From positions 1 to 37,384 of IMG/VR virus record IMGVR_UViG_3300036766_000196: a stretch of 37,384 nt of DNA; one strand, given 5' to 3'. A program made the position numbers and the translations under genes. The stretch is from a virus. This document shows, one piece after another, positions 2,545 to 37,348 of this stretch. The notes under the pieces were generated by a model. The model was given only the letters and a program-made list of their open reading frames with translations. It had not been told where the DNA came from and made no database searches. Every line of letters starts with the position of its first letter. Within the stretch, counting starts at the first letter, position 1.

Positions 2545-2757
2545 ATGCCCGTTACACGCTTTGATCACAGCCTTCAACATGCCCAACAAATAGACATGTT
2601 AAGAACGAAAAACCAGAAACTAGAGAAAAGGGTCGAGGCTCTTGAAGAGCAAGTAAAAACACTTCTTGAGGTCACGGCAAAACGTCCGGTGGGTCGCCCA
2701 CCTAAGGGCGATGAATCAAAAGACTCAAAAGACTCAAAAGACGAACAAGCCGCTTGA
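2545..2757 (+). CDS. Small coiled-coil protein with GRPPKG motif
   Basis: The 70-residue protein has a good ribosome site (AAAAGGAAAA) before ATG. Residues 20-45 form a predicted coiled coil (KLEKRVEALEEQVKTL). They are followed by a basic KRPVGRPPKG segment that resembles an AT-hook, and a charged tail with DSK repeated three times. The tail comes from a 9-bp tandem DNA repeat (GACTCAAAA). The protein is probably a DNA-binding accessory or a small virion protein. Its position between terminase and portal suggests packaging or assembly, but the function is unknown. The stop overlaps the next start (TTGA). Confidence 0.65.
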   Translation: MPVTRFDHSLQHAQQIDMLRTKNQKLEKRVEALEEQVKTLLEVTAKRPVGRPPKGDESKDSKDSKDEQAA

Positions 2758-3710
2758 CCTACATCATCGCCGAGGTTGGTGGAAATCATGACGGTAATAT
2801 CAACACCGCCTTAGAGCTGATTTATCTTGCTTCAGAGGCCGGGGCGGATGCAGTAAAATTTCAAACCTTTACTGCTGAGAAACTGGTTTCTAAAACAGCC
2901 GACGCCCTCCCTCAAGCAAGAAGGGCAGGGTATACTTCTCAATTAGAGCGATTCAAAGACCTGGAATTCTCTGAGTTCGATTGGGAGCGGATTATTCAAG
3001 AGTGTAAAAAAGAGAATATTGACTTTTTAACAACTTGTTTTGATCCAGAAACTTTAAGGCTTTTCTCCCCGAGGATGAAATTTATCAAAATAGCCTCGGG
3101 TGATCTGACCTACAAAGCCTTGCTTCGGGAAGCCCGTGCCACAGGAAAGCATGTATTGTTGTCCAGCGGAATGTCTTCCATGGAAGAAATCAAGGAGGCC
3201 GTAATGATACTTGATCGTGATAACGTTACCGTCCTGCACTGTGTTTCTGCCTACCCCACACCGGACGATCACGCGAATCTGGGGGTGATTACTTCACTTA
3301 AGTCGATTTACAGCTCAGTAGGATATTCTGATCATACCGCGGGGATAACGGCTTGTTTAGTAGCCCTGGGATTGGGGGCCGAGGTCATCGAGAAGCATTT
3401 TACCTTAGATTCAAGTAAAGAATACGGGGATCATCCCTTATCTGCTGAATTCGAGGAATTAAAGGTTCTCGTGGAGGAATCAAAAAGAATATCTTTGATG
3501 CTAGGCGTAGAAAAACCGGACACAATTGAATTAATCAACAAAAATCTGTTACGAAGAGGCGTGTATGCAGCAAAAAACATCCCTCTTGGCGTACCTATTA
3601 GCGAAAAAGACATAATTGAATTACGTCCAGCAACAAGATGTCAATATAATGACGTTATCGGAAGACGTGCAAAGAAGCCCTATTCCATTGGAATGCCCCT
3701 AGATGCCTGA
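2754..3710 (+). CDS. neuB: Sialic acid (N-acetylneuraminate) synthase-like protein
   Basis: NeuB-family enzymes condense phosphoenolpyruvate with an N-acetylhexosamine to give a nonulosonic acid (sialic, legionaminic or pseudaminic). The 318 residues cover the usual TIM barrel and C-terminal SAF domain. Motifs are IIAEVGGNHDGN (4-15), AVKFQTF (33-39), KIASGDLT (112-119), LHCVSAYPTP (about 159-168), GYSDHTAG (about 191-198), IEKHFTLD (about 214-221) and SAF-type RRGVYAAKNI near 270. The start is TTG overlapping the upstream stop by four bases, and the end overlaps the portal start by eight. No CMP-sugar synthetase is present, so activation would depend on the host. The exact sugar product cannot be told from the sequence. 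Confidence 0.88.
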   Translation: MTYIIAEVGGNHDGNINTALELIYLASEAGADAVKFQTFTAEKLVSKTADALPQARRAGYTSQLERFKDLEFSEFDWERIIQECKKENIDFLTTCFDPETLRLFSPRMKFIKIASGDLTYKALLREARATGKHVLLSSGMSSMEEIKEAVMILDRDNVTVLHCVSAYPTPDDHANLGVITSLKSIYSSVGYSDHTAGITACLVALGLGAEVIEKHFTLDSSKEYGDHPLSAEFEELKVLVEESKRISLMLGVEKPDTIELINKNLLRRGVYAAKNIPLGVPISEKDIIELRPATRCQYNDVIGRRAKKPYSIGMPLDA

Positions 3711-26113: not shown

Positions 26114-26234
26114 GTTATCACTAATATTCTTATGTTTATCGGTCACTAATCTGCAATGGCTGCCGGTTGAAATTAAAACCGCACCCGGATGGGTGGCAAA
26201 AGACCATTGGGAACAGCGGGTTTATTGTCGTTGA
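26106..26234 (+). CDS. 42-residue small exported or membrane peptide
   Basis: The ATG at 26106 lies within the end of the previous micro-gene, after CGGAAAAG. The product has a signal-like start (NKLSLIFLCLSVTN) and a short Trp-rich tail (APGWVAKDHWEQRVYCR). Its last 62 bases run antisense into the 3' end of the convergent radical SAM gene. It is plausible as the last gene of the lysis operon, but no family is recognised. Confidence 0.4.
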   Translation: MNKLSLIFLCLSVTNLQWLPVEIKTAPGWVAKDHWEQRVYCR

Positions 26235-27117
26235 ACCAAACATGGGTTGAACCCACGGTACATTTTTCGCATGGAAATCCTTTTTCTGGGGTATTGGATT
26301 GCTTCCTGATCATTTCCATTTTTTCAGAATTCCACAGCCCCATAATTCCAACATCCTGATAGTTCCCTAACGGGAATTCATCATACCAAGAAGAACAGCA
26401 AGGATACCCTACCCCATTCCAGCCTATGACAAGCCGTTGCCAGGGCTGGGCGCAACGTTTTCTCCCTACCGACACAAACCTCCCAGACAACAACCTCCCG
26501 TCCTGCCCCCTATCTGAGGCGGGCCTTATACGAATATCCCTTGTATACCGTAAAAACTTCTCGACAAACGAAACCGCTTCATGATCATTTTGTTTTTGTT
26601 GCGTCATTTGTATCCTGAGTTTTGTCCTTCCTTTATTTTTCTCTCTAAAAAATTCCAATCTTTGTACCAATTTATCCCATGACGCCCCTACCCGGATGCT
26701 CTCATAGGTTTCTTTTGTTGCGCCATCTACCGAAACGATTAATCGATCTAACCCGCCATCAATTAAATTTTCGATCCTCTCTTCAGATAACGCAACTAAG
26801 TTTGTGTTTAATTGCACTTCTTTAATGTCAGCACATTTAGCGAGAAGCACAAAATTCTCAAGCTCCTTGTGTAAAGCTGATTCCCCCCTGAACTGAAATT
26901 TTATTGATGGAATGCCAAGAAATGCAGCCTCGTTAATTAATGAGGCTGCCATATCATTCGGCATCATTCCCTTTTCTGTTATTGGATCAAAACCATGTCT
27001 ACACATAGTGCATCTCAGATTACAATGGTTTGTCAGCTCAATATCCAAATGCAGCGGAACCCTGAAATGGATATTAAACCTTTCAGCTAACCACCATTTT
27101 ATTCTATAAAATTTCAT
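26173..27117 (-). CDS. Radical SAM/SPASM-domain protein
   Basis: The 314-residue protein has the radical SAM cluster motif CNLRCTMC (Cys 32, 36, 39) after the usual ELTNH. The TIM-barrel pattern that follows includes FQFRGESALHKELENF and VSVDGATKETYESIR. A C-terminal SPASM-like region has further Cys pairs (CAQPW, GYPCCSSW, FPCEKCTVGS) for a second iron-sulfur cluster. Relatives in sugar or surface-polysaccharide clusters modify sugars or peptides. Here it is the last of three co-directional sugar-type genes, overlapping the epimerase end by 14 bases. The substrate cannot be assigned. Confidence 0.8.
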   Translation of the reverse strand: MKFYRIKWWLAERFNIHFRVPLHLDIELTNHCNLRCTMCRHGFDPITEKGMMPNDMAASLINEAAFLGIPSIKFQFRGESALHKELENFVLLAKCADIKEVQLNTNLVALSEERIENLIDGGLDRLIVSVDGATKETYESIRVGASWDKLVQRLEFFREKNKGRTKLRIQMTQQKQNDHEAVSFVEKFLRYTRDIRIRPASDRGQDGRLLSGRFVSVGRKRCAQPWQRLVIGWNGVGYPCCSSWYDEFPLGNYQDVGIMGLWNSEKMEMIRKQSNTPEKGFPCEKCTVGSTHVWFNDNKPAVPNGLLPPIRVRF

Positions 27118-27949
27118 AGTTTTCTACATACCATTCAACAGTGTCAATAATCAATTTTTCTATTTTTGTATTTGGTTCATAATTCAACAAAAGTTTAGCG
27201 TTGTTAATATCAACGATATTGGTTAAAGCATCGCCCGGCCTTGGTTGAAGATTAACTATTTCAGCACCTGTAATTCTCGCAACGATCTTGGCAATGTCAT
27301 ACACCGATATTTGGGTCCCTGAACCGACAACTATCGGCCCACACCTACCGCCAAACCTGGATTCAGAGGCGGCCTTAATTGCTCCGCAAATATCATCAAC
27401 ATGAACCAAGTCTCTTGTTTGAAGACCCGTGCCGTTTATGTATATTTTCTTTTTTTTTAAAGCTGTTTTGCAAAAAGAAGCGACAACAGAGGACTTTTCC
27501 ACAGAGAACGGGCCGAAGACGTTGGTGAATCGTAGAATGATAATATCGAGTTTGTTCGCTGTTTGATAGGCTTTTGCAATCGCTTCATTGCAAGCTTTCC
27601 CCGCGCCATAGTGGTGGGTGGGATGATCGGCCGCCGAGCTGGAGGCAAGAATTATCTTTATGTCAGAGTTAATTCTGTTGACAGCTTCGAGCACATTAAC
27701 TGTGCCGAGCACATTAGTTTCAAATGAGGCCGATGGTAATTTATTGCACTGTGGTATCCCAGAGATTGCCGCAAGATGAATGATACAGTCCGGCCTCCCA
27801 TTATCAATGCTGTCCATCACCCTACGGATGTCCACAACATCATCAAACTCACTGTCAGTGATATCTAATCCAAGAAAATCAATATCAGGATTGTTGCGTA
27901 AAAATGCAGAACCGATAAAACCCTTGTAACCAGTAATTAAGTATTTCAT
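27104..27949 (-). CDS. NAD-dependent nucleotide-sugar epimerase/dehydratase
   Basis: The 281-residue protein is an extended short-chain dehydrogenase. It has a nucleotide-binding GYKGFIG (7-13), an HLAAISG-type strand (58-64), a catalytic YGAGK (Tyr 114, Lys 118) and an LRFTNVFGP motif. It would act on a nucleotide-linked sugar (epimerisation, dehydration or reduction). Its ATG overlaps the glycosyltransferase stop (ATGA), so the two should be co-translated. The exact substrate is not visible. Confidence 0.82.
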   Translation of the reverse strand: MKYLITGYKGFIGSAFLRNNPDIDFLGLDITDSEFDDVVDIRRVMDSIDNGRPDCIIHLAAISGIPQCNKLPSASFETNVLGTVNVLEAVNRINSDIKIILASSSAADHPTHHYGAGKACNEAIAKAYQTANKLDIIILRFTNVFGPFSVEKSSVVASFCKTALKKKKIYINGTGLQTRDLVHVDDICGAIKAASESRFGGRCGPIVVGSGTQISVYDIAKIVARITGAEIVNLQPRPGDALTNIVDINNAKLLLNYEPNTKIEKLIIDTVEWYVENYEIL

Positions 27950-28584
27950 TTTGTCACCCCGTATTTTTCCTCTAGCATTTTCCTCACCTTCCCCCGTTCC
28001 TCAATATTTGAGGACATACTCGCATGCCCAGACCTGTAAAAATATAGCGGAAGCGGTAAATGTTTGGATACATAACCATCCCGCCGGAATCTGCACCACA
28101 AGTCAAAGGCTTCTTGATATTGAAGCGATTCATCATACCCACCTAGTGCCTCGAATGTTTCGCGTTTGATTAAAACCCCGCAGGCATGCTCCAGCTTCTC
28201 ATGGCGCCTAACGCTATCGCCGCCAAAATAATCACAATGCACAGCATCACAGTTATACGACGCCGCGACCCTTACCAACAAGCCAACAGTCATAGGCGTA
28301 ATACTATCATCCGCATCAACCCGCATAAAATATTCCCCAGTGGATGCATTTATGCCCCTATTGGAAGCGGCCGCTAGCGATTGCGGATCAGTGCGAATGA
28401 TTACTGCATCCCGATGGGTGCTCGCATATTCGATCATCTCATCAACAACCACCGAGCCCCCATTATTAACAATAATCAGTTCGTTGCCATAATGCTGAGA
28501 CTCAATACTGTGGATACACTCGGCCAAATACTCGACATACGCCTCGTGAGCTACCACTATCACCGATACCTTTTTGCTGTTCAT
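27946..28584 (-). CDS. Family 2 glycosyltransferase
   Basis: I chose ATG at 28584 because AGGGG lies five bases upstream. A GTG two codons earlier is possible. The 212-residue GT-A fold protein has VSVIVVAHE at the start, LIIVNNGGS (37-44), a DADD motif (90-93) for the metal-sugar site, and a GGYDESLQYQEAFDLWCR acceptor-site pattern. It is the first of three - strand sugar genes. Just upstream lie remnants of a GIY-YIG-like gene, and the segment encoding LSDLQTG reads in frame into its start, suggesting the cassette arrived by fusion into that gene. Confidence 0.82.
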   Translation of the reverse strand: MNSKKVSVIVVAHEAYVEYLAECIHSIESQHYGNELIIVNNGGSVVVDEMIEYASTHRDAVIIRTDPQSLAAASNRGINASTGEYFMRVDADDSITPMTVGLLVRVAASYNCDAVHCDYFGGDSVRRHEKLEHACGVLIKRETFEALGGYDESLQYQEAFDLWCRFRRDGYVSKHLPLPLYFYRSGHASMSSNIEERGKVRKMLEEKYGVTK

Positions 28585-28590
28585 AAACAC

Positions 28591-28733
28591 CCCTGTCTGT
28601 AGGTCAGATAAATATTTTACCCATAGTTAACCACTTTCCCCCTCTTTGATTGGCTATACACTATATTTTCAGCAACCGCCTTACCTATCTTTACAGGGCC
28701 GTTCTTACCGCTGGATATTATGTATACGTACAT
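28591..28733 (-). pseudogene. Remnant of a GIY-YIG/MUG113 (T5orf172)-like gene
   Basis: A - strand ATG at 28733 opens MYVYIISSGKNGPVKIGKAV, the hallmark start of GIY-YIG-like MUG113/T5orf172 proteins. It runs only 38 residues to a stop at 28617. About 50 bases further, in another frame, KYLSDLQTG (28591-28617) matches the next conserved motif of the same family (usually RLxxLQTGNP). The gene is therefore frameshifted by extra sequence, and the rest is replaced by the glycosyltransferase gene. A short functional peptide cannot be excluded. Confidence 0.6.
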
Positions 28734-29020
28734 AAATTTTCTCGCAAAAAACCAAAGAACCGGGAAGAAAGGCAAGCCCCCCCTCCCCCCAATAGCTTTA
28801 TTGGGATGAAGCTGTCGCATATCGGGTTTCCCCTCACGGCAGGAAGTCGTAAGAATCCAAGAAAGAAAAAACAGAAATTCACTGTAAAACTGCCAATGAA
28901 CTTGTGTTTTTGCTCTGGCGAAGTTGACAAGGAGGGTGTGGGGATATAAGATTCTTCCACACGTCTTGGACGTTCGCACGTTAAGACTAACTTGACATCT
29001 CCCCGGTGTCAAGTGTGACG
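28734..29020. other. Non-coding region between GIY-YIG remnant and CRISPR repeat
   Basis: I see no convincing gene on either strand. The region holds a C7-T-C6 run (28777-28790), an imperfect hairpin around 28967-28988 (GTCTT...AAGAC with inner ACG...CGT), and the inverted repeat at 28991-29013. It could be the untranslated part of a long - strand transcript from the HTH promoter through the repeat unit to the sugar genes, because no - strand terminator is visible. Confidence 0.4.
28991..29013. repeat. 7-bp inverted repeat CTTGACA/TGTCAAG
   Basis: CTTGACA (28991-28997) and TGTCAAG (29007-29013) flank a 9-bp C-rich spacer. It may be an operator half-site pair or an RNA stem near the terminator. 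No T-run follows. Confidence 0.6.
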
Positions 29021-29041
29021 AACCCCCGAAAGGGGGTTTTT
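29021..29041 (+). terminator. Intrinsic terminator next to the CRISPR repeat
   Basis: Stem AACCCCC (29021-29027), GAAA loop, stem GGGGGTT (29032-29038), continuing as a T-run to 29041 on the + strand. It would stop + strand transcription just before the repeat unit. On the - strand the same hairpin follows the repeat by about 20 bases but lacks a T-run, so there it may only stabilise an RNA 3' end. Confidence 0.75.
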
Positions 29042-29061
29042 CATTTTAACTCAGATCACTC

Positions 29062-29093
29062 GTTTCAATCCACGCGCCCGTGAAGAGCGCGAC
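29062..29093 (-). CRISPR. Solitary type I-C CRISPR repeat (candidate RNA anti-CRISPR)
   Basis: Read on the - strand this is exactly 32 nt: GT, stem CGCGCTC, loop TTCAC, stem GGGCGCG (7 bp with one G-U pair), then the 11-nt handle TGGATTGAAAC. Length, stem position and handle match type I-C repeats, where Cas5d cuts at the stem base to leave an 11-nt 5' handle. No second copy, spacer array or cas gene is seen in the window. It lies 10 bases after the stop of a - strand HTH gene and would be co-transcribed with it. Solitary repeat units in phages are known to act as RNA anti-CRISPRs (Racr) by sequestering Cas proteins, so that role is inferred here. Confidence 0.85.
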
Positions 29094-29103
29094 TGTTTTC
29101 ATG

Positions 29104-29304
29104 CTAAATCTCCGTTTCATATTTCAGAATTTTATGAATTCTTTGTTTTGATACCCCCATGATCAAGCCGATTTTATCCAGTTTAAACCCATTTTTACGC
29201 AACGTTACCGCCACGCCACGCCTGGCCTTCCACGCATCCAGCTGAAGTTGTCTGGGTGAATCTTTTAAATCTTTTAAATCTTTTAAAACTTTACCGCTAT
29301 TCAT
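29104..29304 (-). CDS. Small HTH regulator next to the CRISPR repeat
   Basis: I chose ATG at 29304, which follows a GAGAGGT ribosome site. A start at 29331 has none. The 66-residue protein carries a C-terminal helix-turn-helix (GFKLDKIGLIMGVSKQRIHK, residues 39-58). Its N-terminus has LKD three times, from a 9-bp tandem repeat TCTTTTAAA at 29261-29287. It is divergent from the early genes, and its promoter overlaps theirs. The repeat unit follows within 11 bases. It is therefore a candidate autorepressor of the anti-CRISPR transcript, analogous to Aca proteins. No homology to a named Aca family is claimed. Confidence 0.65.
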   Translation of the reverse strand: MNSGKVLKDLKDLKDSPRQLQLDAWKARRGVAVTLRKNGFKLDKIGLIMGVSKQRIHKILKYETEI

Positions 29305-29337: not shown

Positions 29338-29366
29338 TTGACATTATAAATCACTAGGCCTAAAAT
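29338..29366 (+). promoter_or_regulatory. Strong sigma-70 promoter for the early gene block
   Basis: TTGACA (29338-29343), 17-bp spacer, TAAAAT (29361-29366). The predicted start is near 29373, so the first ATG may be leaderless. A perfect palindrome ATGTATACAT (29365-29374) and ACATGT (29333-29338) flank it and could be operators for the HTH protein. Confidence 0.75.
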
Positions 29367-29371
29367 GTATA
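29343..29371 (-). promoter_or_regulatory. Putative promoter for the HTH/CRISPR-repeat transcript
   Basis: On the - strand: TATACA (29371-29366), 17-bp spacer, TATAAT (29348-29343). The -10 is perfect and the -35 matches four of six bases. It overlaps the divergent + strand promoter almost completely, so the two cannot fire together. Confidence 0.6.
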
Positions 29372-31465: not shown

Positions 31466-31529
31466 ACACGAGACCTCGTGTGAATGTGGTCTTCCGCGCC
31501 CGGCGGAAGGTGCGAAATATCCGGGCACC
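31466..31529 (+). promoter_or_regulatory. Three-hairpin structured RNA before the first repeat-gene array
   Basis: Three stems follow one another: ACACGAG/CTCGTGT (31466-31481), CTTCCGC/GCGGAAG with a 5-nt loop (31491-31509), and GGTGC/GCACC (31509-31529). No T-run follows, so this is not a simple terminator. It sits directly before the first MLGE gene and may control its translation or stabilise the transcript. Confidence 0.55.
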
Positions 31530-31546
31530 ATTTAAGGCGAAGCATT

Positions 31547-31741
31547 ATGTTAGGTGAGTCTCTCAATAATAAGTTTTACACCGCGCTTGACCACGCGCTT
31601 TACCGCGCGCTTCTCCCCGCGCTTGACCCCGCGCTTTATCCCGCGCTTTACAGTGCGCTTCGCGTCGCGCTTTACCGCACGCTTGGCCCCGCGCTTCTCA
31701 CCGCCCTCGTCCAACTTGAGCAGGACTTAAAAAAATGTTAG
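31547..31741 (+). CDS. Tetrapeptide-repeat protein, array 1 copy 1
   Basis: 64 residues. The start is ATG at 31547, after AAGGCG and behind the three hairpins, giving MLGESLNNKF. About ten AL-x-x units follow (ALDHALYRALLPALDPALYP), then a charged end LVQLEQDLKKC. The end is read through a run of seven A, so the stop is TAG inside ATGTTAG, which is the start of copy 2. Frequent Pro every fourth residue argues against one straight helix. Function unknown. Confidence 0.75.
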   Translation: MLGESLNNKFYTALDHALYRALLPALDPALYPALYSALRVALYRTLGPALLTALVQLEQDLKKC

Positions 31742-31968
31742 GTAAATCTGTCGATAATAAGTTTCGCGTCGCGCTTGGCCCCGCGCTTGACCACGCGCTT
31801 TACGACGTGCTTTATCCCGCGCTTTACCGCACGCTTGACCCCGCGCTTGGCCCCGCGCTTGACGACACGCTTCGCCCCGCGCTTCGCGTCGCGCTCCACA
31901 ACGCGCTTCGCCCCGCGTATGACGCCGCCCGCGACCAACTTCAGCAGGAAATAAAAAATGTTAGGTGA
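31735..31968 (+). CDS. Tetrapeptide-repeat protein, array 1 copy 2
   Basis: 77 residues, MLGKSVDNKF type, overlapping copy 1 by 7 bases. The centre has about 13 units (ALDPALGPALDDTLRPAL). The end is AARDQLQQEIKNVR, read through six A with a TGA stop inside the next start. It forms a pair with copy 1 that is duplicated as copies 3 and 4: an MLGES gene ending KKC followed by an MLGKSV gene ending QLQQEIKN. Function unknown. Confidence 0.75.
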   Translation: MLGKSVDNKFRVALGPALDHALYDVLYPALYRTLDPALGPALDDTLRPALRVALHNALRPAYDAARDQLQQEIKNVR

Positions 31969-32143
31969 GTCTCTCAATAATAAGTTTCACGACGCGCTCC
32001 ACGACGCGCTTCACGACGCGCTTGGCCCCGCGCCTTACCCCGCGCTTCGCAACGCGCTTTACAATGCGCTTTACCGCACGCTTACCGGCACGCTTGACGC
32101 CCCCGCCGTCGTCCAACTTCAGCAGGACTTAAAAAAATGTTAG
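31958..32143 (+). CDS. Tetrapeptide-repeat protein, array 1 copy 3
   Basis: 61 residues, MLGESLNNKF start overlapping copy 2 by 11 bases. The centre begins ALHDALHDALGPAPYPAL and includes TLTGTL. A DAPAVVQLQQDLKKC end is again read through seven A. The DAPAVV insert before the end is shared with copy 7, so these parts seem to be exchanged between copies. Function unknown. Confidence 0.73.
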   Translation: MLGESLNNKFHDALHDALHDALGPAPYPALRNALYNALYRTLTGTLDAPAVVQLQQDLKKC

Positions 32144-32382
32144 GTAAGTCTGTCAATGATCAGTTCCGCGTCGCGCTTGGCCCCGTGCTTCGCCGCACGC
32201 TTGACCCCGCGCTTCGCCCCGCGCTTGACCACGCGCTTTACCAAGCGCTTGTCCCCGCGCTTTACGATGCGCTTCGCGTCGCGCTTTACGACGCGCTTTA
32301 TCCCGCGCTTTACCGCACGCTTGCCTGCACGCTTGACGCCGCCCGCGACCAACTTCAGCAGGAAATAAAAAATGCTAGGTGA
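32137..32382 (+). CDS. Tetrapeptide-repeat protein, array 1 copy 4
   Basis: 81 residues, among the longest. MLGKSVNDQF start, about 14 units (ALDHALYQALVPALYDAL), and a DAARDQLQQEIKNAR end like copy 2. It overlaps copy 3 by 7 bases and copy 5 by 11. The start has a Q in place of K at residue 9 (NDQF). Function unknown. Confidence 0.73.
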   Translation: MLGKSVNDQFRVALGPVLRRTLDPALRPALDHALYQALVPALYDALRVALYDALYPALYRTLACTLDAARDQLQQEIKNAR

Positions 32383-32566
32383 GTCTCTCAATAATAAGTT
32401 TCGCGTCGCGTGTCACGACACGCTAACCCCACGGATGTACGCCAAGCTTACCCCCGTTTACTACGCGCTTAGCACCGAACTTTACAATGCGCTTTTCCAA
32501 GCGCTTACCCCCGCGCTTCTCACCGCCCTCGCCCAACTTCAGAAGGAAATAAAAAATGCTAGGTGA
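32372..32566 (+). CDS. Tetrapeptide-repeat protein, array 1 copy 5 (diverged)
   Basis: 64 residues with MLGESLNNKF start. The first half of the centre is the most degenerate of the family (ACHDTLTPRMYAKLTPVYYA), although the 4-residue Leu/Ala rhythm is still visible. The second half is regular (ALFQALTPALLTAL). The end AQLQKEIKNAR is normal. It shows that start, end and overlap are kept while the centre drifts. Function unknown. Confidence 0.7.
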   Translation: MLGESLNNKFRVACHDTLTPRMYAKLTPVYYALSTELYNALFQALTPALLTALAQLQKEIKNAR

Positions 32567-32753
32567 GTCTCTCAATAATAAGTTTCGCGACGCGCTTGGC
32601 CCCGTGCTTGACCCCGTGCTTGACCCCGTGCTTGACCCCGCGCTTTACCGCACGCTTGACCCCGCGCTTTACCACGCGCTTGACGTCGCGCTTCGCCCCG
32701 CGTATGACGCCGCCCTCGTCCAACTTCAGCGGGACTTAAAAAATGTTAGGTGA
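32556..32753 (+). CDS. Tetrapeptide-repeat protein, array 1 copy 6
   Basis: 65 residues. After MLGESLNNKF the centre contains three identical VLDP units (PVLDPVLDPVLDPAL), identical also in DNA (GTGCTTGACCCC), a sign of recent unit duplication. End AALVQLQRDLKNVR. Overlaps both neighbours by 11 bases. Function unknown. Confidence 0.73.
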   Translation: MLGESLNNKFRDALGPVLDPVLDPVLDPALYRTLDPALYHALDVALRPAYDAALVQLQRDLKNVR

Positions 32754-32943
32754 GTCTCTCAATAATAAGTTTTACGTCGCGTATGACGACGCGCTTGGCC
32801 AAGCGCTTTACCGCGCGCTTTACGACACGTTTGATCCCGAGTTTAATCGCACACTTCGACGCGCGCTTGAAGCCGCGCTTCCCCCCGCGAATGACGCCCC
32901 CGCCGTCGTCCAGCTTCAGCAGGACTTAAAAAATGTTAGGTGA
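32743..32943 (+). CDS. Tetrapeptide-repeat protein, array 1 copy 7
   Basis: 66 residues, MLGESLNNKF start. The centre has more charge than others (DTFDPEFNRTLRRALEAALP) and some Leu replaced by Phe. It has the DAPAVVQLQQDLKNVR end. Overlaps of 11 bases on both sides. Function unknown. Confidence 0.72.
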   Translation: MLGESLNNKFYVAYDDALGQALYRALYDTFDPEFNRTLRRALEAALPPANDAPAVVQLQQDLKNVR

Positions 32944-33118
32944 GTCTCTCAATAATAAGTTTTACGAGGCGCTCCACGACGCGCTTCGCCCCGCGCTTGA
33001 CCCCGTGCTTTACCCCGCGCTTCGCCCCGTGCTTGACCACGAGCTTTATTCCGCGCTTTACTCCGTGCTTGACGCCGCCCTCGTCCAACTTCAGCGGGAC
33101 TTAAAAAATGTTAGGTGA
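32933..33118 (+). CDS. Tetrapeptide-repeat protein, array 1 copy 8
   Basis: 61 residues, MLGESLNNKF start, about ten units (ALRPALDPVLYPALRPVL), and a DAALVQLQRDLKNVR end shared with copy 6. Overlaps of 11 bases on both sides. Function unknown. Confidence 0.73.
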   Translation: MLGESLNNKFYEALHDALRPALDPVLYPALRPVLDHELYSALYSVLDAALVQLQRDLKNVR

Positions 33119-33353
33119 GTCTCTCAATAATAAGTTTCACGACGCGCTTGACTACGCGCTTGGCCCCGCGCTTGGCCCCGCGCTTGACCCCGCGCTTTAC
33201 GACGCGCTTCTCGTCGCGCTTGACACCGCGCTTGACCCCGCGCTTCGACGCACGCTTTATCGCACGCTTGAACGCACGCTCCACGACACGCTTACCCCCG
33301 TACTTGACGATATCCTCGTCCAGCTGGAACGAGACATAACAAAGGAAACCTGA
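33108..33353 (+). CDS. Tetrapeptide-repeat protein, array 1 copy 9 (last)
   Basis: 81 residues with MLGESLNNKF start and about 15 units (ALGPALGPALDPALYDAL, later TLERTLHDTLTPVL). Its end differs (LVQLERDITKET): there is no following MLGE gene, and the NVR-stop ending is lost. This suggests the usual ending is fixed by its double use as the next gene's start. The following gene begins one base after the stop. Function unknown. Confidence 0.73.
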   Translation: MLGESLNNKFHDALDYALGPALGPALDPALYDALLVALDTALDPALRRTLYRTLERTLHDTLTPVLDDILVQLERDITKET

Positions 33354-34082: not shown

Positions 34083-34272
34083 CTATCTTGACCCGTTGAT
34101 TGTGCTTGAATACGACGAACGAAAAGAAATCGGATGCTTTTCTTGCAGGAACAGCAAAAGGAGGGACTTTAAAAGCTTTTGCCAGATATTGGAATTAGGT
34201 ATAGGCGAAAACCTTAACTACCCGGACGAATCGAAATACAGTTGTAAATTCTACATAGGAAAAAAACGATGA
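34069..34272 (+). CDS. Small Cys-rich (possible zinc) phage protein
   Basis: I chose ATG at 34069. An earlier ATG at 34018 would overlap the NinG-like gene more. The 67-residue product has CFSC, a later FCQ and SCKFYIGKKR, four Cys spaced as in a small zinc-binding fold. The pattern DPLxxLExxxxxxGCxxC is familiar from small phage proteins of unknown function near ninG-type genes. It overlaps the next gene by four bases. Confidence 0.58.
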   Translation: MRKIDYLDPLIVLEYDERKEIGCFSCRNSKRRDFKSFCQILELGIGENLNYPDESKYSCKFYIGKKR

Positions 34273-35378
34273 AATTAATAGTGTTAGGCGCAGACGGATA
34301 TATCGGATCGGAATTCATGTACAGAAACGACATACATCACGATATAATCGTGGTCGATAATTATTACAAGCGCACTTTGCTTGGGGAAGAGAAAATAACC
34401 CCACTCTATGACGTGCCATATATACATGACAGAGATTGGAGGTGCAAAAAATCATTTATTGATATTACCGATTCATCTGCCGTCGATAGATTAATAAAAA
34501 ACTTTAAACCAGATGCAATACTCCATCTCGGAGAACAACCTTCCGCGCCGTGGTCGATGAATGGAGCGGGGAAGGCTACACGAACGATTGATAATAACCT
34601 TAATGGTACGTTAAATATTATTTTTTCCGTTTTAGCGCATGCGCCGGACGCACACATAATCAAAATCGGATCAATGGGCGAATATGGTACGCCGAACGTA
34701 ATCATACCCGAAGGCTGGTTTGATCTGGACTATCGAGGCAGACAGGACAGGTTGTTATTTCCAAAAAACCCGCATTCTATCTATCATCTATCCAAGGTTT
34801 TCGAGTCCGACGCTTTAGCGTTTGCCTGTAAAACATGGGGACTCAAAGTTACTGATCTCAATCAGGGCTTTGTCTATGGAACGACATCGGAGGCGAGATC
34901 GCGATATTGTTACGACGCAATGTTTGGTACTTCAATCAATCGTTTTATCGCACAGGCTGTTGCGGGGATACCTTTAACTGTATACGGTAAAGGCGGACAA
35001 ACAAGGGGCTTGATACATATCAGCGATAGCATTAAGTGTCTGGAATTAGCACTTCAAAACACGCCTACCGCCGGACAATTTGTTGTTGCCAATCAATTAA
35101 CGGAATGGAAAACGATTAATGATATTGCAGCAATGGTAGTAGGTGCCGCCGAACAAATGGCGATAACTGCAACGATTGAACCGATAGATAATCCACGGAC
35201 AGAGCAAGAAGAGCATTTTTACCAAGCCGATCATAGTGTTATGCAAGACTATGGTTTAAGAGCGATACCAATAAATCTCGCACTATTAATGGAACAAATA
35301 GATTTAGTGAGGTTTTATAAAGATAACATTAAAAAAGAATTAATATTCCCAATGGTGAAATGGTCTAAAAGGGGTTGA
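34269..35378 (+). CDS. sqdB: UDP-sulfoquinovose synthase-like (SQD1) enzyme
   Basis: SQD1/SqdB makes UDP-sulfoquinovose from UDP-glucose and sulfite, the head-group donor for sulfolipids and some sulfoglycans. The 369 residues match over nearly full length: GADGYIG (7-13), HLGEQPSAPWSM (86-97), GSMGEYGTPNV (134-144), YHLSK (Tyr 172, Lys 176), DLNQGFVYGTTSEAR (196-210), FGTSINRF (219-226) and VYGKGGQTRG (238-247). A NPRTEQEEHFY segment lies near 310. Ser 135 replaces the usual Thr of the plant enzyme. A different but related nucleotide-sugar product cannot be excluded. The ATGA overlap upstream places it in the recombination operon. Confidence 0.88.
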   Translation: MKLIVLGADGYIGSEFMYRNDIHHDIIVVDNYYKRTLLGEEKITPLYDVPYIHDRDWRCKKSFIDITDSSAVDRLIKNFKPDAILHLGEQPSAPWSMNGAGKATRTIDNNLNGTLNIIFSVLAHAPDAHIIKIGSMGEYGTPNVIIPEGWFDLDYRGRQDRLLFPKNPHSIYHLSKVFESDALAFACKTWGLKVTDLNQGFVYGTTSEARSRYCYDAMFGTSINRFIAQAVAGIPLTVYGKGGQTRGLIHISDSIKCLELALQNTPTAGQFVVANQLTEWKTINDIAAMVVGAAEQMAITATIEPIDNPRTEQEEHFYQADHSVMQDYGLRAIPINLALLMEQIDLVRFYKDNIKKELIFPMVKWSKRG

Positions 35379-35806: not shown

Positions 35807-36670
35807 ATGAAAACCACAAAACTGACACCCGAACAACAAGAAAAATTGATTGAGTTTAGAGATGAGTGCTTGGCTATTGGGCTGTCGTGCGAGCCAGTGG
35901 ATGCACAATTGGCAACCGAGACGATCAGCGCGGCATATAAAATTATGGGCCTAAAAGTGCCAGAAATTCGGATTGTGTCTTCGCCGCTGGCCGCAAATAA
36001 ACTAATAAATAAAATCAGCAAAAAAAAGGCAAATAATTACACGGCTACATACCTATGGGGTGCTAGTGACATCTATTGGATCGCGTTTTATTTGTTTCCA
36101 GAAATGTACCTCGGCATTACATACCCAAAAGAATCTTCAGAAAAATTGCATATCATGTATGAGATCGCTAAAAACACCGGTTGGTGGTATCCGTTTGAAA
36201 ATTTATGCATTGTTTCCGACAGGCCCGAATATATTAAGTGCGATGATCAAAAAAGGCTCCATTCGGCCACCGGCCCGGCAATACTCTATCGAGACGGGTT
36301 TGCTGTGTACCAGTATCATGGTGTTGATATCCCAAAAGAGTGGATTTTAGAAAAAAATCTAACACCAGCGCAAGCGCTTACCTGGAAAAACGTAGAGCAG
36401 CGCAACGCTGCATGTCAAATACTGGGTTGGAAAGACATATTAAAAACCCTGAAAGCGGAGATTATTGACGCCGATCCGAACCCTTATCTAGGCACGCTGT
36501 ACAGCGCCACGATGCCGGGCGGCGCCGAACAAAAATTTTTAGCCGCAAAATGTGGAACCGGCCGGGAAATAGTAATACTCGCATCATCAAAAGCCAAGAC
36601 CGCAAGGGAGGCGGGGGCACTGAGTTATGGTATACCAGTGACTGACTATAACCCGGAGGCACGAACCTAA
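35807..36670 (+). CDS. DUF6745-like protein
   Basis: I chose ATG at 35807 after GAGGA. A TTG six bases earlier is less likely. The 287-residue protein carries the DUF6745-like signature: LHSATGPAILYRDGFAVYQY (151-170), HGVDIPKEWI (171-180), and an EQRNAACQILGW helix. Upstream are YLWGASDIYWIAFYLFPEMY (82-101) and WWYPFENLCIVSDRP. Family members occur in bacteria and phages, and their function is not known to me. The stop overlaps the start of the first array 2 gene (TAATG), so the protein and the tetrapeptide-repeat gene are translationally coupled. Confidence 0.72.
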   Translation: MKTTKLTPEQQEKLIEFRDECLAIGLSCEPVDAQLATETISAAYKIMGLKVPEIRIVSSPLAANKLINKISKKKANNYTATYLWGASDIYWIAFYLFPEMYLGITYPKESSEKLHIMYEIAKNTGWWYPFENLCIVSDRPEYIKCDDQKRLHSATGPAILYRDGFAVYQYHGVDIPKEWILEKNLTPAQALTWKNVEQRNAACQILGWKDILKTLKAEIIDADPNPYLGTLYSATMPGGAEQKFLAAKCGTGREIVILASSKAKTAREAGALSYGIPVTDYNPEART

Positions 36671-36852
36671 TGTTAGGCGAGACTCTCAATAATAAGTTTT
36701 ACGACACGCTTCGCCCCGCGCTTGGCCCCGCGCTTGACCCCGCGCTTGACCCCGCGCTTCGCGACGCGCTTGACCACGCGCTTTATCCCGCGCTTTACGA
36801 TGCGCTTCGCTTCGCGCGCGCCGCCGTCGTCGCCCAACTTGAGCATTTCTAG
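36670..36852 (+). CDS. Tetrapeptide-repeat protein, array 2 copy 10
   Basis: 60 residues, MLGETLNNKF start in the TAATG overlap with the DUF6745-like stop. Regular centre (ALGPALDPALDPALRDAL). It has a short different end (RAAVVAQLEHF) that lacks the usual DLKN tail. The next copy starts after a 3-base gap rather than an overlap. Coupling to DUF6745 suggests the two products act together. Function unknown. Confidence 0.72.
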   Translation: MLGETLNNKFYDTLRPALGPALDPALDPALRDALDHALYPALYDALRFARAAVVAQLEHF

Positions 36853-36855
36853 AAA

Positions 36856-37113
36856 ATGCTAGGTGAGCCTCTCAACAATAAGTTTTACGAGGCGCTTAGC
36901 CCCGCGCTTTACAATGCGCTTAGCCCCGCGCTTGACCCCGCGCTTTACGATGCGCTTTACCACGCGCTTTACCACGCGCTTTACGATGCGCTTCGCGGCA
37001 CGTTTCCCCGCGTACTTGACCCCGCGCTTTACGATGCGCTTGACCACGCGCTTCGCCCCGCGCTTCGCCCCGCCCTCGTCCAGCTTCAGCAGGACTTAAA
37101 AAATGCTAGGTAA
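36856..37113 (+). CDS. Tetrapeptide-repeat protein, array 2 copy 11
   Basis: 85 residues, the longest in the window. MLGEPLNNKF start, about 16 units (ALYNALSPALDPALYDAL) broken once by RGTFPRVL. Normal VQLQQDLKNAR end. Overlaps copy 12 by 11 bases, where the stop is TAA in GGTAAA. Function unknown. Confidence 0.73.
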   Translation: MLGEPLNNKFYEALSPALYNALSPALDPALYDALYHALYHALYDALRGTFPRVLDPALYDALDHALRPALRPALVQLQQDLKNAR

Positions 37114-37348
37114 ATCTCTCAATAATAAGTTTTACGTCGCGCTTGACTACGAACCTGACGTCGCGCTCAATCCCGTTCTTTCCAGCGGGATTGAGCCAGC
37201 GCTTTACGATGCGCTTCGCGGCACGTTTCCCCGCATACTTAGCCCCGCGCTTGGCCCCGCGCTTGACCGCGCGCTTGACGCCGCGCTTACCCTCCCCCGC
37301 GCCGCCGCCCTCGTCCAACTTCAGAAGGACTTAAAAAATGTTAGGTAA
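37103..37348 (+). CDS. Tetrapeptide-repeat protein, array 2 copy 12 (with palindromic insert)
   Basis: 81 residues, MLGKSLNNKF start. The early centre is irregular (VALNPVLSSGIEPALYDA) because an 11-bp inverted repeat lies there. After it, ALYDALRGTFPRIL repeats the block of copy 11. End LVQLQKDLKNVR. Overlaps the next start by 11 bases. Function unknown. Confidence 0.72.
   Translation: MLGKSLNNKFYVALDYEPDVALNPVLSSGIEPALYDALRGTFPRILSPALGPALDRALDAALTLPRAAALVQLQKDLKNVR
37165..37196. repeat. 11-bp perfect inverted repeat inside array copy 12
   Basis: GCTCAATCCCG (37165-37175) and CGGGATTGAGC (37186-37196) flank a 10-bp loop. It breaks the 12-bp rhythm but keeps the reading frame. It looks like a small palindromic insertion. 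Confidence 0.85.

What the first reader, a model, noticed from the sequence alone, without database searches (positions are those of the whole stretch)
29062..29093. Solitary type I-C CRISPR repeat in a phage: candidate RNA anti-CRISPR
The 32-nt element has a 7-bp stem with one G-U pair, a UUCAC loop and an 11-nt 3' handle TGGATTGAAAC, exactly as a Cas5d-processed type I-C repeat. There is no array and no cas gene in the window. Phage solitary repeat units are known to mimic crRNA scaffolds and tie up Cas proteins. A type I-C unit behind an HTH gene would be a distinct member.
Basis: partly seen in the sequence, partly recalled or inferred. Interest (0 to 1): 0.92.

Follow-up and report, generated by a model that had tools for sequence, protein, structure and literature searches.

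The report
Phage-borne solitary I-C CRISPR repeat
A phage carries one lone copy of a bacterial immune-system (CRISPR type I-C) repeat right behind a small regulator gene, most likely a decoy RNA that ties up the host's Cas proteins; this is a good new example of an already described kind of viral trick.

Summary
Window 29062-29093, minus strand, reads GTCGCGCTCTTCACGGGCGCGTGGATTGAAAC: 7-bp stem with one G-U pair, UUCAC loop, 11-nt 3' handle. It is identical over all 32 nt to the repeats of genuine type I-C arrays: 11 copies in a Pseudomonadales MAG whose genome carries cas3, cas5c, cas8c, cas4, cas1 and cas2, and 2 copies in Rhodopirellula baltica. In the window it is solitary: the next-best match has 14 of 32 mismatches, and no cas5 or cas1 is found. 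It lies 10 nt behind a 66-aa HTH gene. A sister phage, 95-98% identical around it, lacks it: a 70-nt stretch with the repeat is 24 nt there, with matching flanks. Other viral contigs also carry solitary I-C repeats, often directly behind a gene end (33% versus 10% of random positions). The best reading is an RNA anti-CRISPR (Racr) candidate: co-transcribed with the HTH gene, bound and cut by host Cas5c, diverting I-C proteins into dead complexes. Transcription, processing, host and inhibition are not shown. Racrs are known, and RacrIC1, a type I-C one 11 nt behind an acr gene, was tested in 2023. So this is a new candidate member of a known kind.

The parts
29062..29093 (-). solitary type I-C CRISPR repeat (Racr candidate): GTCGCGCTCTTCACGGGCGCGTGGATTGAAAC
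29073..29091 (-). stem-loop CGCGCUC-UUCAC-GGGCGCG (7 bp, one U-G)
29062..29072 (-). 11-nt handle UGGAUUGAAAC that Cas5c would leave on the 3' product
   Evidence: sequence; processing inferred from Cas5d family knowledge
29104..29304 (-). 66-aa HTH protein gene, stop codon 10 nt before the repeat; probably in one transcript with it
29343..29371 (-). promoter-like site TATACA-17-TATAAT for the HTH gene and repeat, overlapping a divergent + promoter-like site 29338-29366 (TTGACA-17-TAAAAT)
   Evidence: consensus match only
29047..29116 (.). patch present here and replaced by 24 nt in the sister phage; holds the repeat and the last codons of the HTH gene
29020..29044 (.). strong hairpin, identical in the sister phage; intrinsic terminator on the + strand, hairpin with short T run on the - strand downstream of the repeat
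29046..29102 (-). 18-codon ORF running through the repeat (MKTVALFTGAWIETSDLS) with GGAG before its ATG; may be chance, since two of the three frames of the repeat are open
   Evidence: sequence; not tested for translation

Best explanation
A type I-C RNA anti-CRISPR (Racr) candidate. The minus-strand promoter before the HTH gene makes one RNA carrying the HTH message and then the lone repeat. In a host with a type I-C system using this repeat, Cas5c (Cas5d) binds the stem-loop and cuts after the stem, leaving a product with the 11-nt handle but no usable guide: about 16-20 nt are followed by a hairpin. Cas5c, and through it Cas7 and Cas8c, are occupied in dead complexes, so fewer working Cascades form. 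Shown: the repeat is real, solitary, identical to genuine I-C repeats, and absent from a near-identical sister phage. Inferred: transcription, Cas5c cutting, sequestration, and that the host has I-C.
For: 32/32 identity to I-C array repeats; one of those genomes has cas3-cas5c-cas8c on one contig and cas4-cas1-cas2 beside the array. Solitary, no Cas5d or Cas1 in the window. Sister phage lacks it within a sharply bounded patch. No host-like leader in front (by inspection). 52 further solitary I-C repeats in viral contigs, 33% within 30 nt of an upstream gene end versus 10% of random positions, and inside large ORFs less often (15% versus 48%). RacrIC1 precedent with the same layout and tested inhibition.
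Against: No expression or binding data. Host unknown: no spacer from the arrays with this or a near repeat hits either phage beyond the shuffled level, and apart from the repeat no DNA of window 20000-37384 matches the two genomes with the identical repeat. Single locus, so conservation of the repeat in this phage lineage cannot be shown. The neighbour is a regulator-like gene, not a recognised acr gene.
Confidence: 0.8

Rival explanations
1. A crRNA-like guide: the repeat plus downstream sequence is processed into a real crRNA that targets a competitor, the host or the phage's own promoter (mini-array or regulatory-guide function).
For: A handle followed by RNA is all a type I guide strictly needs; viral mini-arrays exist (PMC11656645).
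Against: No second repeat. The would-be spacer runs into a hairpin after about 16-20 nt, and most of it from there on is sequence shared with the sister phage. No self match beyond 8 nt, and that one without a TTC PAM.
Confidence: 0.06
2. An inert remnant of a host CRISPR array picked up by recombination, with no present function.
For: Identity with a host repeat is also what a recent pick-up would give; the sister phage lives without it.
Against: Exactly one full-length repeat, no leader and no partial second repeat; placed between a stop codon and a hairpin rather than at random; the same arrangement recurs in unrelated viral contigs.
Confidence: 0.1
3. A landing site for the host's Cas1-Cas2, used to capture spacers or to integrate phage DNA into arrays.
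For: Suggested as a possibility for solitary repeats in the literature cited by PMC10651486.
Against: The sequence before the repeat does not resemble the leaders of the two arrays with the same repeat (by inspection), and type I adaptation normally needs the leader.
Confidence: 0.03

Closest known systems
RacrIC1 (Bifidobacterium pseudocatenulatum prophage; PMC10651486)
   Same: Solitary type I-C repeat mimic directly behind a small ORF (10 nt here, 11 nt there); single-transcript layout likely here, shown there.
   Different: Front gene here is an HTH protein, there AcrIC5; Gram-negative type repeat here; no function test here.
RacrIF1 and other tested Racrs (types I-E, I-F, V-A; PMC10651486)
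   Same: Lone repeat in a phage or prophage without cas genes, imitating the host repeat.
   Different: I-F uses Cas6f, which stays on the stem while Cas7f filaments on upstream RNA; in I-C, Cas5c does the cutting, so details must differ.
Type I-C CRISPR repeat of Pseudomonadales MAG NORP299 and Rhodopirellula baltica BR-MGV
   Same: Identical in all 32 nt.
   Different: There the repeat is arrayed with spacers beside cas genes; here it is single with neither.
Viral CRISPR mini-arrays (SPV1/SPV2; PMC11656645)
   Same: Virus-borne host-type repeat.
   Different: Mini-arrays have spacers between repeats; here there is one repeat and no spacer.

Membership tests
Racr / viral solitary repeat unit (SRU) | high identity to a known CRISPR repeat of a defined subtype | tested here: met
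   32/32 with arrays of two genomes encoding Cas5d, one with I-C cas3-cas5-cas8
Racr / viral solitary repeat unit (SRU) | no further (partial) repeats or cas genes nearby | tested here: met
   next-best match 14 mismatches; no Cas5d or Cas1; other cas families only partly covered, by Pfam and PADLOC scans of selected ORFs
Racr / viral solitary repeat unit (SRU) | intergenic, in a viral genome | tested here: met
   IMG/VR record with portal, major capsid and terminase genes; lies between the HTH stop and a hairpin
Racr / viral solitary repeat unit (SRU) | repeat-like RNA stem-loop | tested here: met
Racr (functional) | transcribed | not testable with these tools
   only promoter-like sites
Racr (functional) | host carries the cognate CRISPR subtype | tested here: inconclusive
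   host unknown; no spacer links
Racr (functional) | inhibits CRISPR-Cas immunity | not testable with these tools
   needs a phage plating assay
Viral CRISPR mini-array | at least two repeats around a spacer | tested here: not met
Aca-type regulator for the HTH gene | small HTH protein beside an acr gene, repressing its promoter | tested here: inconclusive
   HTH supported; no recognised acr beside it; repression not testable

The most novel reading that the evidence does not exclude
The repeat is both a decoy and a switch: by cutting the shared HTH-repeat RNA, host Cas5c would change the stability or output of the HTH message, so that the phage's divergent early promoter responds to whether a type I-C system is present.
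Probability: 0.06. Interest if true: 0.75.

Novelty: new member of a known kind. Interest (0 to 1): 0.42.

Why it matters
If true, it adds a type I-C RNA anti-CRISPR from an SU10-like phage of unknown, probably Gram-negative, host to a class with few tested I-C members, and offers a natural with/without pair of sister phages for testing it. The full 32-nt identity with a known array lets the matching I-C system be named for the test.

Tried and rejected
Spacer link to a host: 113 spacers from arrays with this or near repeats against the window and the sister phage, no match beyond shuffled spacers. An 88% extension of one repeat hit in front of the repeat was tested with shuffles and is not significant (P 0.09). 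More relatives: HTH protein, a neighbour protein and the conserved intergenic core each found only the one sister contig. Rfam at gathering threshold: none; relaxed: CRISPR-DR9 at 19.9 bits, far under its cut-off. Named phage records: no DNA relative of the region and no full-length repeat match (best 90% over 31 nt in a short unannotated fecal phage contig with three places). Protein-coding remnant as the origin of the 32 nt: rejected because of full identity with a CRISPR repeat.

Full report
What is there. The 32 bases at 29062-29093 read, on the minus strand, GTCGCGCTCTTCACGGGCGCGTGGATTGAAAC. The RNA folds as a 7-bp stem with one U-G pair, a UUCAC loop and an 11-nt single-stranded 3' tail.

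Is it more than chance? Its folding energy alone would not prove anything (z -1.64). Its identity does. A scan of about 85,000 bacterial and archaeal species genomes found the exact 32-mer in two: a Pseudomonadales MAG (NORP299) with an 11-repeat array and a Rhodopirellula baltica assembly with two copies at a contig end. Both lie beside Cas2 and Cas1 genes (named by reading the translations), both genomes encode a Cas5d-family protein, and in the MAG cas3, cas5 and cas8 lie in one operon of type I-C order (cas3 and cas8 named by reading). Four of 296 relatives of the MAG have arrays one or two bases away. Random sequence of the window's make-up comes no closer than 12 mismatches.

Is it solitary? 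Yes. The next-best place in the window has 14 mismatches, no Cas5d or Cas1 family is found in any frame, and the single weak Cas4 signal belongs to a phage exonuclease. The record is a linear IMG/VR contig of 37,384 bases of an SU10-portal, SU10-capsid phage. Its ends may be missing.

Surroundings. The repeat begins 10 nt after the stop codon of a 66-aa gene with a C-terminal helix-turn-helix. That gene has a promoter-like site overlapping a divergent one for the early + strand genes, so it is probably a regulator; that is inference. Behind the repeat follow about 16-20 nt and a strong hairpin. On the + strand that hairpin is an intrinsic terminator, which would shield the repeat from antisense transcription from the left.

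The sister phage. One contig in IMG/VR, 42.6 kb, matches most of the window at 95-98%. It lacks the repeat over its whole length at up to 3 mismatches. The two differ in a sharply bounded patch: window 29047-29116 (70 nt) against 24 nt, with nearly invariant sequence on both sides. So the repeat was gained or lost recently as a small cassette. Two sequences cannot tell which.

Other phages. Scans of viral contigs with I-C repeat patterns gave 78 stretches; 52 copies with enough flanking sequence stand alone. A third of them lie within 30 nt of an upstream same-strand gene end (10% of random positions), and they avoid the inside of large ORFs. The layout here is therefore typical. Counts are of contigs and include near-duplicates.

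How it probably works. Cas5c (Cas5d) of type I-C binds the repeat stem-loop and cuts at its 3' base (established for the family). A lone repeat in a transcript would occupy Cas5c and give a handle-bearing RNA without a usable guide. For RacrIF1 an aberrant Cas6f-Cas7f complex was shown, and for RacrIC1 inhibition of I-C immunity was shown (PMC10651486). For this phage each of these steps is inferred. The host is unknown, and spacers gave no link.

Standing. Racr candidates number in the thousands (2,103 on viral sequences), and a type I-C one behind a small gene has been tested. This is a well-supported new candidate member, not a new kind. Whether this very contig was in that paper's list could not be checked.

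Noticed in passing
window 28924-29044 (+): Probable small RNA: promoter-like TTGACA-17-TAAGAT (28924-28952), then about 87 nt forming three hairpins (z -5.87) that end in an intrinsic terminator. The first hairpin's stem differs from the sister phage but still pairs, while the rest, including a CUCCCC loop, is invariant. No Rfam family.
   Followed up: partly
window 31484-33353 and 36670-37348: Twelve tandem small paralogous ORFs (MLGESLNNKF, then tetrapeptide repeats such as ALDP-ALYP-ALYS, then QLQQDLKNVR), mostly overlapping start to stop, rearranged between the sister phages; no match by tblastn in named phages with one member.
   Followed up: partly
window 28609-28733: About 120 bp of intergenic DNA absent from the sister phage; contains the inverted repeat TTATGTA-TACG-TACATAA.
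   Followed up: no
window 2754-3710, 26173-28590, 34269-35378: Sugar genes in a phage: NeuB-family synthase, two NAD-dependent epimerases, a family 2 glycosyltransferase, a radical SAM/SPASM protein.
   Followed up: no
L007 and L009 (IMGVR_UViG_3300031673_000079): One viral contig holds at least three identical type I-C repeats far apart (two are 597 nt apart), two of them behind the same short upstream motif (TATCTGCG); dispersed solitary repeats rather than an array.
   Followed up: no
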